Origin: an uncultured Rikenella sp.
GTDB taxonomy: Bacteria; Bacteroidota; Bacteroidia; Bacteroidales; Rikenellaceae
Direction of reading: 5' to 3'
Assembly: GCF_947628055.1 (NCBI RefSeq)
Contig: NZ_CANQYJ010000012.1
Span: 1-34,879 of the forward strand
Length of the DNA stretch: 34,879 bases
The notes under the pieces were generated by a model. That model was not told the DNA's origin, ran no database searches, and saw only the letters and a list, made by a program, of their open reading frames with translations. The position numbers and the translations under genes were made by a program. Each line of letters starts with the position of its first letter. The first letter of the stretch is position 1. This document shows, piece by piece, positions 9,461 to 33,220 of this stretch.

Positions 9461-9564
9461 GGTTGGAGTACCTATCGCACCCGCGCGCCATGCCGGAAAA
9501 AGGGAAATCGACGGTTTCAACGTGAGTTGAAAGCGAACGATTTTCCCGACGCGCGGGGAAAATA
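9461..9564. repeat. hairpin repeat family D, copy 1
   Basis: ggttggagtacctatcgcacccgcgcgccatgccgg followed by hairpin GGGAAATCG..TTTCAAC..GTTGAAA..CGATTTTCCC. Aligns with copy 2 at 9674-9777. Confidence 0.6.
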
Positions 9565-9673
9565 AGTTGGATTAAAGACTGCCCAAGCGAAACGCAGTTT
9601 CGCCCGTCCCGCCGGGGTCACCCGGACGCCGCCCGCGCAGGGCAGTACCCTCCGGTTAAGGTGTAGCACCCCC

Positions 9674-9777
9674 AGCTGGAATGCCCAGCGACACCCCGCG
9701 CGCGATTGCTGGAGAAGGAAATCGTTCAAAAGCAGCATGCGCTTTTGAACAGGATTTCCGCCAGCGTGCAGGCAAAA
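9674..9777. repeat. hairpin repeat family D, copy 2
   Basis: agctggaatgcccagcgacaccccgcgcgcgattgctgg followed by hairpin GGAAATC..GTTCAAAAGC/GCTTTTGAAC..GATTTCC. Confidence 0.6.
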
Positions 9778-9908
9778 CCCATCTTCGGGTCGCAGCCTGC
9801 GGAATTGGGTAGTTCCAGCCCGGCTCGGGTGCCGAGCGGCACCGGACCTCCCGAGGGGGAGGCGTCTGGCCCGCGCGACCTGCGGTCGCAAATAGTATCA
9901 AAAAAACA

Positions 9909-10324
9909 GTACGGTTTATTTAGCACTGTGCCGTGAGTGACTGTTCTTTCTTTGAAAAGAAAGGCCCCATAGGGGCTTTCCGGGCTGTAATTACCCTAAT
10001 CCTTACGCTCCGCAGTCCTCTTTCTTTGAACCCTGTTTTTTTGTCAGGACTTTCCAATGCGGCGCGCATAAAGGTAATGCAATCATTAGCGCGCCCATTG
10101 AGAAAGCCCGACAAAAACAAAACATTCGAGAACCGGGGGTACCCGGCAGGCTCAAGAGATGCGTTAGCATCTCAAAAAGTTTTTCTGGTTCTCGCTAACT
10201 GCGCTCCGCTTGTTTTCCTCCTCGCCGCTCACCATAGTCCGCAAGCGGCCTCTGGATTCGCTGGCAGCGTCGGTTGTTCACAAAGAGAACAGTACCCTCC
10301 TGGAACACGTACAATAAAACCTAC
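9909..10324 (+). repeat. mosaic structured repeat element, copy C
   Basis: Shares gtgagtgactgttctttctttgaaaagaaag, cgctccgcagtcctctt, gggtacccggcaggctcaagagatgcg..agcatctcaaaaa, and ttgttcacaaagagaacagtaccctcc..aaaacctac with copies A and B. Internal hairpin differs. Confidence 0.8.
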
Positions 10325-17619: not shown

Positions 17620-17998
17620 GTAGGTTTTCTTGCACATGCTTGGGAGTGAACTGTTCTCTTTGTGAACAAAGAGAACCAGAAAACCGACGCAGCAGGCGAG
17701 CGCCATCAAGCTTGCTCGAATGGCCGAGGCGCCAGGAGGAAGGCGAAGTCAAACTTTCTGAGATGCTTACGCATCTCTTGAGCCTGCCGGATACCCTTGT
17801 CTTTGATTCTCTTGGGGTGTGAGCAATAGCGGGCTATTGAGTACCGTGCTTTATGCCCGCTATTGCCACGCCCCAAAGAAAGTGCAATGCAAGAGGACTG
17901 CGGAGCGTAAGGAGTAGCGCAGCTATCGGAAAGTCTTTTGGGTACCTTTTCTTCAGAAAAGGTACGGTTCCATCCGGCACCGTGCAATATAAACCTAC
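17620..17998 (-). repeat. mosaic structured repeat element, copy A
   Basis: Terminal inverted repeat gtaggtttt.ttgcac..gtgcaatataaacctac. Reverse complement matches copy B over nearly its whole length by eye. Hairpins at 17653-17676 and 17814-17874. Confidence 0.88.
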
Positions 17999-22562: not shown

Positions 22563-23020
22563 GTAGGTTTATTTTGCATTGTGCTGTGAGTGACTGTTCT
22601 TTCTTTGAAAAGAAAGAACCAAAGAAACTTTCAGATAGCTGCGCTACTCCTTAGGCTCCGCAGTCCTCTTGCATTGCGTTTGCTTTGGGGTGTGGCAATA
22701 GTGGGCATAAGGTATGGTACTCAATAGCCCGCTATTGCTCACACCCCAAGAGAATCAAAGACAAGGGTACCCGGCAGGCTCAAGAGATGCGTAAACATCT
22801 CAAAAATTTTAGCTTCGCCTTCCTCTTGGCGTCTCGGCCATTCGAGCAAGCTCGATGGCTCTCGCCTGCTGCGTCGGTTTTCCAGTTCCTTTTGTTCACA
22901 ACCGAGCAGCGTTTCGAGAGCAGAGGCCGCTTGCGGACTATGCCGAGATAGCGCGAGGAAAACAAGCGTAGCGAAGTTAAAGAGAACAGTTCCCTCCCAA
23001 GCACGTATAAGAAAACCTAC
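22563..23020 (+). repeat. mosaic structured repeat element, copy B
   Basis: Begins gtaggtttattttgcattgtgctgtgagtgactgttctttctttgaaaagaaagaac and ends ccctcccaagcacgtataagaaaacctac. Inverted relative to copy A. Carries a ~77 bp module at 22902-22978 that is absent from A. Confidence 0.88.
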
Positions 23021-31003: not shown

Positions 31004-33220
31004 TTATTCATCCAGCCCTGTGATATTAGCGAATTGGCTCCATCCATCGGCAGCCTTATAGGCCGTCACCGACGACGATGGGACTTTTAAAATGCAAAAA
31101 AAACTTTTTTTACCAATATCCGTCAATGCCCCGGTACCAATCCGGGGAGGAATCGAGGTGCCGATCTTGAACAATTGCACGCTTGAATTACCCCAAAAGG
31201 CATAATCCTCGATAGAAGTTACTTGTGTACAATTCGACATATCCACTGTCGTCAAATATAGCCCAGCAAAGGCTCCATAATAGTAAGAGAAGTACTGTCC
31301 TCCTCCAATCGTGTTGAGTTGAGACCCTGGTTCAAAGGTTACTGTTGCCAAGTTAGAACAGCCTTGGAATGCAGCACTTTCAATCATCTCCACACTGGCT
31401 GGAATCTCGATAGAGGTTAACGAGGAACAATCCGAAAAGGCACCATAATAAAATTGACCATCATATCCACTTGCACCATAACCTCCTGCAATCGTTTTCA
31501 ATCGAGACCCTGGTTCAAAAGTTACCGTTGCTAATTTAGAACAGTCTTTGAATGCACATATTTGAATCGTCTCCACACTGGCCGGAATTTCAATAGAGGT
31601 TAACGAGGAACAGTCCGAAAAGGCACCATGATAGATATTAGAATAGGTAGCATCAAGTGCACCCCCGATTAGTTTCAACTGAGACCCCGGTTCAAAAGTT
31701 ACCGTTGCTAATTTAGAACAGCCTTTGAATGCCGAGGCTTGTATCGTTTCCACACTAGCTGGAATTTCTACAGTAGTCAATGCGGTATAAGCAAGCAATC
31801 CTTCACTAATAATGGTCAAGGTTTTAGGAAGAATCAATTTTTGCACATTTTTAGAATAAAAAGCTTTTGCCGGCAACTCCGTAATATTTACTTCGGAAAT
31901 ATCGAGGTCAGTCAAAGCAGGCATCGAATAGTAGATAAACAGGAAATCGGCATCGTTCAATATCCCCGTAATTTTCAACGACTTGATGCGGGCATAGTCA
32001 TAGCCTGACAATACGTTCTCCAGTTCGCCTTTCGTCTCGACATGTACTTCCGTGCAGGTACCCAACTGCTGAATCATAATCGTTTGCAGGGTGTTTTTCT
32101 GCTCGTCTTTCAAAAAGACTGTTGCAAAACGTTGAGTCCCCTCGTTGGCAGCAACCTGAAAGGAGAGCGTCTTCTCTTGCAAAGCACGGGTCGCAGGAGC
32201 CAACGATAACCACGACTGAGCATCGGCAGAAATCTCGACCGTATAATCCATATTCGTCATTAATTTAATGGCTACGGTTCCTCCTTCAGAGGGAGTATCG
32301 ATCGCATTATCAGCCAGAACAACCTGACCCTGCATGCAATTCAAGGTAGCCATAAGAGTTCGATACTCTCCGTCATTGACGAATACAAGGATTTCACTTT
32401 CGACAATCGGGTTGGGAGCCGTTACGGTAATCGTCCCCTCGGCAGTCGAGGTCGGATTAACGATCGCTTTCCAGCCGTCTTGTGCAATCGCTTTGACAAC
32501 CGTATTTTCCGTACTTCCTGTGATCGTGTAAGAAATCGTTTTGCTCTCGCCTCCGTTCAAAATAGCGGCATCGGTCGTATTGAAAACAATGGCAAACTTC
32601 GCGCCCTCGCTTTTCGGTACCGTAAGAACGGTTCCGCTGGTCAACGTAAAATAGGCATTGTCTTTGTCTTCCGTTACACTTTTGAAGATGCTGTTACCAT
32701 CTTTACCATCTTCACCCACGGCCTTGCCGAGTTGTGTCCAAGTACTGCCGTTATTATAGGATATATACCAGTACCCATTCTCGATTTTCAGTTGAGGCGT
32801 AATGCCATCTTTACCACTCGTGCTGTCTTCTCCGTTTGTCCCATCCGTACCTTGTGCTTTCACTTTCTTACCTGCATCATCGGTCAGCCAACTGCCGTTC
32901 ACCGTCCAATAATAGAACCCGTCTTTATCTTGTTTCACGCCAATCTCAGGTGCATCGCCGCTATTCATCCCGTTCCGGATCGTTGCACTCTTACCGTCCG
33001 AGAAATGGATCGTGTACCCGTTCGTATTTTCTTCTACTTGGGTGATCGTAACTTGCGATTGTAGAGCCGTTACGATGGTTTGCAAGGCGGAAAGTTCTTC
33101 TTGCAACCTCGTTACCCGACCATTCACATCATTCAGTCCATTGCGTAACTCACTATCGTCATACTCGCTGCATCCGGACAGCAATGCGCTACCCATCAGC
33201 AAAAACAGTAGTTTTTTCAT
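31004..33220 (-). CDS. BspA-like leucine-rich-repeat surface lipoprotein with DUF4988-like N-terminus and BACON-like domains
   Basis: Lipobox MKKLLFLLMGSALLSGCSEYDDSELR. EIGVKQDKDGFYYWTVNGSWL..GKDGITPQLKIENGYWYISYNNGSTW. LRR_5-type repeats SLTSIEIPASVETIQxxAFKGCSKLATVTFEPGSQL. Confidence 0.92.
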   Translation of the reverse strand: MKKLLFLLMGSALLSGCSEYDDSELRNGLNDVNGRVTRLQEELSALQTIVTALQSQVTITQVEENTNGYTIHFSDGKSATIRNGMNSGDAPEIGVKQDKDGFYYWTVNGSWLTDDAGKKVKAQGTDGTNGEDSTSGKDGITPQLKIENGYWYISYNNGSTWTQLGKAVGEDGKDGNSIFKSVTEDKDNAYFTLTSGTVLTVPKSEGAKFAIVFNTTDAAILNGGESKTISYTITGSTENTVVKAIAQDGWKAIVNPTSTAEGTITVTAPNPIVESEILVFVNDGEYRTLMATLNCMQGQVVLADNAIDTPSEGGTVAIKLMTNMDYTVEISADAQSWLSLAPATRALQEKTLSFQVAANEGTQRFATVFLKDEQKNTLQTIMIQQLGTCTEVHVETKGELENVLSGYDYARIKSLKITGILNDADFLFIYYSMPALTDLDISEVNITELPAKAFYSKNVQKLILPKTLTIISEGLLAYTALTTVEIPASVETIQASAFKGCSKLATVTFEPGSQLKLIGGALDATYSNIYHGAFSDCSSLTSIEIPASVETIQICAFKDCSKLATVTFEPGSRLKTIAGGYGASGYDGQFYYGAFSDCSSLTSIEIPASVEMIESAAFQGCSNLATVTFEPGSQLNTIGGGQYFSYYYGAFAGLYLTTVDMSNCTQVTSIEDYAFWGNSSVQLFKIGTSIPPRIGTGALTDIGKKSFFCILKVPSSSVTAYKAADGWSQFANITGLDE
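31300..31775 (-). repeat. intragenic tandem repeats encoding LRR units
   Basis: Three near-identical blocks (gagaccctggttcaaaagttaccgttgctaatttagaacagcctttgaatgc..ccacactggctggaatttc..) within the BspA-like gene. Confidence 0.85.

What the first reader, a model, noticed from the sequence alone, without database searches (positions are those of the whole stretch)
22902..22978. Module insertion inside the closing hairpin of copy B, present inverted in copy C and absent from copy A
Copy A has a continuous ..ttgttcacaaagagaac.. (reverse complement). Copy B is split as ttgttcacaa | ~77 bp | aagagaac. The inserted block (cagaggccgcttgcggactatg..gaggaaaacaagcgtagcgaagtta) appears in copy C at about 10195-10254 as its reverse complement (taactgcgctccgcttgttttcctcctcgccgctcaccatagtccgcaagcggcctctg), in a different position. 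This implies sub-elements that insert and invert independently within the larger element.
Basis: seen in the sequence. Interest (0 to 1): 0.75.

Follow-up and report, generated by a model that had tools for sequence, protein, structure and literature searches.

The report
Hairpin module nested in mosaic repeats
A gut bacterium (genus Rikenella, or very close to it) carries roughly a hundred copies of a patchwork DNA repeat built from swappable hairpins; the 77-bp piece in this finding is one such hairpin, lodged inside another, and it looks inverted only because its target is a palindrome with two mirror-image arms.

Summary
Copy B holds exactly 77 bp (22902-22978) in the loop of the closing hairpin, copy A has that hairpin empty, and copy C holds a related 77-bp module (10197-10273) in the other arm, reading backwards. 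The match is far above shuffles (39 versus at most 18 in 2,000). The genome belongs to the same genus as a MAG deposited as Rikenella sp. (Rikenellaceae, Bacteroidales). In 954 kb of it I found 99 repeat clusters, so roughly 100 elements per genome are likely. Each element is a chain of hairpin cassettes joined by conserved linkers; several positions come in different types that combine almost freely (34 combinations in 42 complete copies). All four types of the long central hairpin occur with both loop orientations. The module sits in the left or right arm of the closing hairpin, with its CCGA end at the apex in all 54 apex junctions; none is reversed. So the 'inversion' is arm choice in a palindromic host, not a flip of the module. 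Related stand-alone units exist in three other genera. No candidate transposase was found. I read this as a new composite mosaic repeat family, probably reshaped by inverted-repeat template switching plus recombination.

The parts
22563..23020 (+). Copy B: full mosaic element (terminal inverted arms GTAGGTTT ... AAACCTAC)
22596..22619 (+). Copy B hairpin P2, cassette type F (GTTCTTTCTTTGAAAAGAAAGAAC)
22685..22749 (+). Copy B long hairpin P3, cassette type 1, loop orientation +
22784..22801 (+). Copy B small hairpin P4 (GAGATGCG...CATCTC) in the conserved linker
22811..22879 (-). Copy B accessory module Y (AACCGACGCAGCAG..hairpin..GGCGAAGC on the minus strand); also in copy A, absent from copy C
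22885..22987 (+). Copy B closing hairpin P5 with the module in its right arm
22892..22901 (+). Copy B P5 apex TTGTTCACAA
22902..22978 (+). Module X, 77 bp (CCGAGCAGCG ... GCGAAGTT): the finding
17620..17998 (-). Copy A: full element with empty closing hairpin
17653..17676 (-). Copy A empty P5 (GTTCTCTTTGTTCACAAAGAGAAC)
9909..10324 (+). Copy C: full element, P3 type 4, module in the left arm of P5
10188..10290 (+). Copy C closing hairpin P5
10197..10273 (-). Module X', 77 bp, subtype CCGACGCTGCCAG..., in the left arm, hence reverse-complemented

Best explanation
The 77-bp block is one hairpin unit of a composite intergenic repeat family of Rikenella. Shown: the host element is a series of hairpin cassettes (P1 terminal arms, P2, P3, P4, P5) on conserved linkers, and units of the module's kind lie in the arms of P5 (and of P2) with a fixed polarity relative to the hairpin. 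Because P5 is a palindrome, insertion in the left arm makes the module read backwards relative to insertion in the right arm; that is the 'inversion'. Inferred: new units enter at hairpins, probably when a replicating strand pauses at the hairpin and resumes on another template that shares a few bases; the same process evens out stem arms and flips loops. Inferred: once made, a P5 variant spreads to other elements by homologous recombination across the conserved linkers, which gives the near-random cassette combinations. Inferred: the repeats are mainly selfish or neutral DNA-level palindromes rather than genes.
For: Polarity rule 54:0 (36 right-arm and 18 left-arm apex junctions, none reversed), plus P2 junctions obeying the same rule (two apex, two base). 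P5 states in 51 scored copies: 29 empty, 11 right, 5 left, 3 both, 3 fused palindromes. P5 state shows no detectable association with P1, P2, linker or P3 (shuffle p 0.15-0.95) and is associated only with adjacent module Y (p<0.001). 34 combinations in 42 complete copies. P3 loops occur in both orientations in all four types (18/2, 14/4, 4/8, 3/1). Terminal arms pair better with their own partner than with other copies' arms (15.3 versus 11.4, p 6e-6), and C7:31974 has a private but complementary pair. Stand-alone related units occur in G035, G016 and G026 without the P5 apex or the anc2 linker in the loci read. Empty P5 occurs across the genus, including G005. The same arm arrangements occur in G001, a 2-contig genome. 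Template switching between inverted repeats is published to homogenise arms and invert spacers (PMC8604942; PMC8794818).
Against: No event has been caught between strains: only one genome per species is held, so direction and rate are inferred. The left-arm base is nearly always GTTCTCGCTAAC, which points to few insertions followed by spread rather than frequent independent insertion. Template switching explains loop flips and arm matching well but does not by itself explain how ~100 dispersed copies arose; an unrecognised mobilising enzyme may exist. Published spacer inversions are much shorter (2-5 substituted bases in yeast genes) than the ~90-110-nt type-3 loops here. Many paralogous copies are not independent, so the association tests are only indicative.
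Confidence: 0.6

Rival explanations
1. Nested non-autonomous transposons: both the ~340-bp element and the 77-bp module are MITE-like and moved by a transposase, the module preferring hairpins as target.
For: The element has terminal inverted arms and ~100 dispersed copies. The module has constant ends and occurs alone elsewhere. At one orthologous gene junction G003 and G006 carry an element that G004 lacks. A 2-bp AA duplication at the right-arm site is possible from the sequences.
Against: No Y1_Tnp, DDE_Tnp_1 or IS110 (Transposase_20) match in any of 8 genus genomes, and for rve only a sub-threshold match in G001. Terminal arms exist in several unrelated sequences that pair only with their own partner, unlike constant transposase sites. 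No convincing target duplication was seen.
Confidence: 0.22
2. A structured RNA family: hairpins are kept for RNA function and modules are tolerated in loops.
For: Strong folding (z -7.1 for copy B, DNA parameters); some compensated stem changes (14 cells in P3 types 1 and 2); conserved linkers.
Against: G-T mismatches are not in excess of A-C (24 versus 45 in P3; 37 versus 54 in P1), although one ancestral C-A column drives much of the P3 difference and without it the test is inconclusive. No Rfam family reached its gathering score in the repeats; only two microRNA families matched, far below theirs. Placement follows the genomic background (54 tandem, 12 convergent, 10 divergent) and orientation to neighbouring genes is mixed, 16 versus 11. 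All four P3 types exist with both loop orientations.
Confidence: 0.1
3. One ancestral P5 with both arms filled; copies A, B and C arose by simple deletions.
For: Three copies with both arms filled exist, and removing either arm's module would give the other layouts.
Against: Empty P5 is the commonest form in this genome (29 of 51) and is seen across the genus, including species with few of these repeats. Related units occur without P5 in other genera. A deletion in the left arm would not restore the exact empty sequence, since GTTCTCGC would have to become GTTCTCTT.
Confidence: 0.06
4. Assembly artefact: repeats chimerically joined in a short-read MAG.
For: Many contigs of this MAG end inside the repeats.
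Against: Copies A, B and C lie inside a 34.9-kb contig; left-arm and right-arm layouts recur at many unrelated flanks and in G001, a 2-contig genome of 98% completeness.
Confidence: 0.02

Closest known systems
Composite interspersed repeats: BIME (enterobacteria), NIME (Neisseria), BOX (pneumococcus)
   Same: Short intergenic repeats, tens to hundreds per genome, assembled from interchangeable subunits (described in PMC3049150).
   Different: Other sequences and another phylum. Here units are nested inside the stems of other hairpins with fixed polarity, hairpin types are swapped at fixed positions, and loops flip.
Rickettsia palindromic elements (RPE) and other bacterial MITE-like palindromes
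   Same: Hairpin units of about 100-150 bp spread through a genome, without an experimentally supported mobilising enzyme (PMC2229807).
   Different: RPEs also enter protein and RNA genes. Here no repeat cluster overlapped a predicted gene in the 954 kb, and the units mostly lie in other repeats' hairpins.
REP/RAYT system (IS200/IS605-like TnpA_REP)
   Same: Short palindromic repeats in many copies, sometimes in pairs.
   Different: No Y1_Tnp gene in any of the 8 genus genomes.
Inverted-repeat template switching (quasipalindrome mutation; spacer inversion)
   Same: Arm homogenisation and spacer inversion between inverted repeats, as in PMC8604942 and PMC8794818.
   Different: Here loops are up to ~110 nt, all four central-hairpin types flip, and extra hairpin units are added, which that mechanism has not been shown to do.
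Small loop inversions in chloroplast hairpins
   Same: Loops found in both orientations between short inverted repeats (several plastome papers listed; only titles, counts and abstract openings seen, not read).
   Different: Bacterial, in dispersed paralogous copies rather than single orthologous sites.

Membership tests
Composite bacterial interspersed mosaic repeats (BIME/NIME/BOX-like, in the broad sense) | Many dispersed intergenic copies | tested here: met
   99 clusters in 954 kb, none overlapping a predicted gene
Composite bacterial interspersed mosaic repeats (BIME/NIME/BOX-like, in the broad sense) | Built from several distinct subunits in variable combinations | tested here: met
   34 combinations in 42 complete copies
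BIME, NIME or BOX proper | Sequence homology to PU, dRS3 or boxA/B/C | not tested
   No alignment to those families was made; they are known from other phyla, so membership is not claimed
REP/RAYT | Associated Y1 transposase (PF01797) | tested here: not met
   No match in G000-G007
MITE of a DDE insertion sequence | Transposase with matching terminal repeats in the genome | tested here: inconclusive
   No DDE_Tnp_1 in 8 genus genomes, and rve only as one sub-threshold match; other DDE families not searched; own genome is 87% complete
MITE of a DDE insertion sequence | Constant terminal inverted repeats | tested here: not met
   Several unrelated arm sequences, each complementary to its own partner
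MITE of a DDE insertion sequence | Target-site duplication | tested here: inconclusive
   TTAA near several ends and a possible AA at P5, not distinguishable from stem extension
IS110/IS1111-type hairpin-targeting elements | IS110-family transposase (PF02371) | tested here: not met
   No match in 8 genus genomes, with positive controls
Structured RNA (Rfam) | Match to a described family | tested here: not met
   Gathering scan found only two tRNAs; permissive scan of copy B found only sub-gathering microRNA matches
Inverted-repeat template switching | Loop found in both orientations between conserved arms | tested here: met
   All four P3 types; P5 apex flipped once, C32
Inverted-repeat template switching | Observed event in replication | not testable with these tools
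   Needs mutation accumulation or strain series

The most novel reading that the evidence does not exclude
Rikenellaceae hold an undescribed mobile system in which hairpin DNA units are copied specifically into the arms of other hairpins, with polarity set by the target hairpin, by an enzyme unrelated to the transposase families searched here.
Probability: 0.15. Interest if true: 0.8.

Novelty: new variant of a known kind. Interest (0 to 1): 0.5.

Why it matters
Mosaic repeats of bacteria have been known for decades, but how their subunits are shuffled is still unclear. This family shows one genome with many copies in which nesting polarity, loop flips, arm matching and cassette swapping can all be scored, so the contributions of template switching, recombination and transposition could be separated directly in strain series or laboratory mutants. 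It also warns that 'inverted' modules in palindromic repeats need not mean an inversion event.

Tried and rejected
RAYT/REP: no Y1_Tnp in the genus. IS110: none. DDE_Tnp_1: none; rve: only one sub-threshold match, in G001. Reverse transcriptase: PF00078 is present in G000, G001, G002, G006 and G007 and absent from G003, G004 and G005, which looked as if it tracked repeat load. The protein has an IGNLTSQ motif, lies next to a kinase-like gene in several of the genomes inspected and in several follows ORFs with a repeated NNRANGFQVRCLQAF-type C-terminus, which I read as a diversity-generating retroelement (my reading, no family test); the correlation is more simply explained by kinship, so I dropped it. 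Simple flip of the P5 loop as the cause of copy C: rejected, because TTGTTCACAA keeps its orientation. RNA selection by G-U excess: not seen, and inconclusive once one ancestral column is removed. Terminator-like placement: convergent sites not enriched. Empty-site comparison for a target duplication: the G004 junction lacks the element but is too diverged to align. Viral contigs: no hit to one exact 19-mer. A first script for stem pairs returned nothing because its search range was too short; it was rerun.

Full report
CHECK OF THE OBSERVATION. The three copies are as described. Copy A (17620-17998, minus strand) closes with GTTCTCTTTGTTCACAAAGAGAAC. Copy B carries exactly 77 bp, 22902-22978, between TTGTTCACAA and AAAGAGAAC. 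Copy C carries 77 bp, 10197-10273, between GTTCTCGCT and TTGTTCACAA. The blocks match as reverse complements over 58-59 nt with local score 39, against at most 18 for 2,000 dinucleotide shuffles and at most 15 for random pieces of the window. They are not identical units: the apex-side ~19 bp differ (CCGAGCAGCG, subtype X, versus CCGACGCTGCCAG, subtype X').

WHERE IT IS FROM. The window is contig C12 of a 2.41-Mb, 87% complete MAG. A record titled Rikenella sp. isolate SC0320_S5_12 (L110, handle G061) gives the same contig number and coordinates as G002 in the same query, so G061 and G002 appear to be the same genome, and G002 is classed in the window's own genus. It was not found in IMG/VR. 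The genome scan may leave out records very near the window's own.

ABUNDANCE. In 954 kb (28 contigs, 40% of the genome) 99 clusters are repeated at least five-fold and cover 25.5 kb. 56 elements hold both conserved linkers in the 1.1 Mb read, 36 of them in the 954 kb. By simple scaling roughly 100 elements per genome is likely; this is an estimate.

ANATOMY. The typical element is ~340 bp: terminal arms P1; hairpin P2; linker with CGCTACTCCTTAGGCTCCGCAGTCCTC; long hairpin P3; linker GGGTACCCGGCAGGCTCAAGAGATGC with small hairpin P4; closing hairpin P5. P2 has four scored types, P3 four and P1 at least two plus private ones. P5 in 51 scored copies is empty 29, right-arm 11, left-arm 5, both arms 3, fused palindrome 3. 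A further module, Y, of the same general make-up may lie before P5 (19 of 56). Y is in copies A and B, not C.

POLARITY. Scanning all sources on both strands, the CCGA end of the module abuts the P5 apex 36 times in the right arm and 18 times in the left arm; the reverse arrangement was not found (0 by apex patterns, 0 by base pattern). Two modules in P2 follow the same rule. So the module's direction is fixed relative to its hairpin, and only the arm varies. This accounts for the 'inverted' module of copy C without any inversion event.

TRUE FLIPS. P3 loops do occur in both orientations: type 1 18/2, type 2 14/4, type 3 4/8, type 4 3/1 (sequences). For example C8:33596 has TTAGGTACTGAACCTTATGATG and C23:8049 has CATCATGAGGTTCAGTACCTAA. 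In one empty P5 (C32) the apex reads TTGTGAACAA. Published work shows that template switching between inverted repeats homogenises arms and inverts spacers (PMC8604942) and can create and maintain hairpins (PMC8794818).

SHUFFLING. 42 fully typed copies give 34 combinations. P5 state shows no association with P1, P2, linker or P3 in shuffle tests (p 0.15-0.95); it is associated with the adjacent Y (p<0.001). A few other pairs are weakly associated (P1-P2 p 0.03, P2-P3 p 0.015, linker-P3 orientation p 0.02, P3-P3 orientation p 0.003). Twenty-one pairs were tested and copies are related, so the weak values are not evidence. Recombination across the conserved linkers is the simplest inference.

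P1. Own arms pair better than swapped arms (mean 15.3 versus 11.4, 32 of 42, p 6e-6). C7:31974 has an arm sequence not shared with the two main types, yet well paired.

GAIN OR LOSS. Empty P5 is seen in G001, G002, G003, G005, G006 and the Rikenella sp. MAG. In the loci read from G035, G016 and G026, units with the module's hairpin or tail occur without the P5 apex or the anc2 linker; in G026 the unit runs CAACCGACGC...CAAGCGTAGCGAAGTTTAATCTC with almost the same ends. This favours insertion into P5. At the sigma-54 regulator junction, G003 and G006 carry elements with internally different content, while G004, with the same neighbouring gene, has none. The two flanks of copy B, and the two flanks of copy C, are not adjacent in the other genus genomes where both were found, so these copies sit at rearrangement points; cause and effect are open.

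RNA OR DNA. In P3 stems G-T mismatches number 24 and A-C 45, in P1 37 and 54: no G-U excess on the plus strand. Much of the P3 difference comes from one C-A column (29 of 32 A-C cells in types 1 and 2), and without it the test does not decide. No Rfam family fits. Clusters follow background placement between genes (gene calls are rough, 73.5% coding). DNA-level palindromes are favoured but not proved.

ENZYME. No Y1, IS110 or DDE_Tnp_1 transposase in eight genus genomes; rve only as one sub-threshold match. The reverse transcriptase found is read as that of a diversity-generating retroelement and set aside. Other transposase families were not searched.

FOLDING. Copy B as a whole folds far better than shuffles (z -7.1), and the empty P5 of copy A does too (z -3.1); the filled P5 pieces of copies B and C do not (z about 0.2). 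So a module in P5 weakens the closing hairpin rather than extending it.

VERDICT. Anatomy, polarity rule, loop flips and cassette mixing are shown. Insertion by hairpin-associated template switching followed by recombination is inferred (0.6). The kind is known (composite mosaic repeats); the family and the nesting rule appear new to the literature I could search, which lacks most subscription journals.

Noticed in passing
window 9481-9900: Another set of repeated sequence just upstream of copy C, matching many other places in the genome and genus; a different repeat family from the 340-bp element.
   Followed up: no
L175:8453-9922 (G000:C17): Reverse transcriptase ORF with IGNLTSQ motif; upstream reading frames in several genomes end in NNRANGFQVRCLQAF-like stretches: probably a diversity-generating retroelement, with relatives in G001, G002, G006 and G007.
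   Followed up: partly
window 22563-23020 and 9909-10324: Copies B and C lie where gene order differs from the other genus genomes: their flanking genes are far apart or on different contigs there.
   Followed up: partly
window 31299-31810: Three direct repeats of 152 nt at ~180-nt spacing, inside a long ORF (31004-33220, minus strand).
   Followed up: no
L061, L060 (G035): Dense arrays of several different hairpin units of the same general make-up, plus GTCATGCTGAGCGAAG-type repeats.
   Followed up: partly
L043:1-408, L025:16296-16792, L059:2649-2749: Three P5 hairpins in which a left-arm and a right-arm module are fused at the centre with loss of the apex, giving a longer palindrome.
   Followed up: partly
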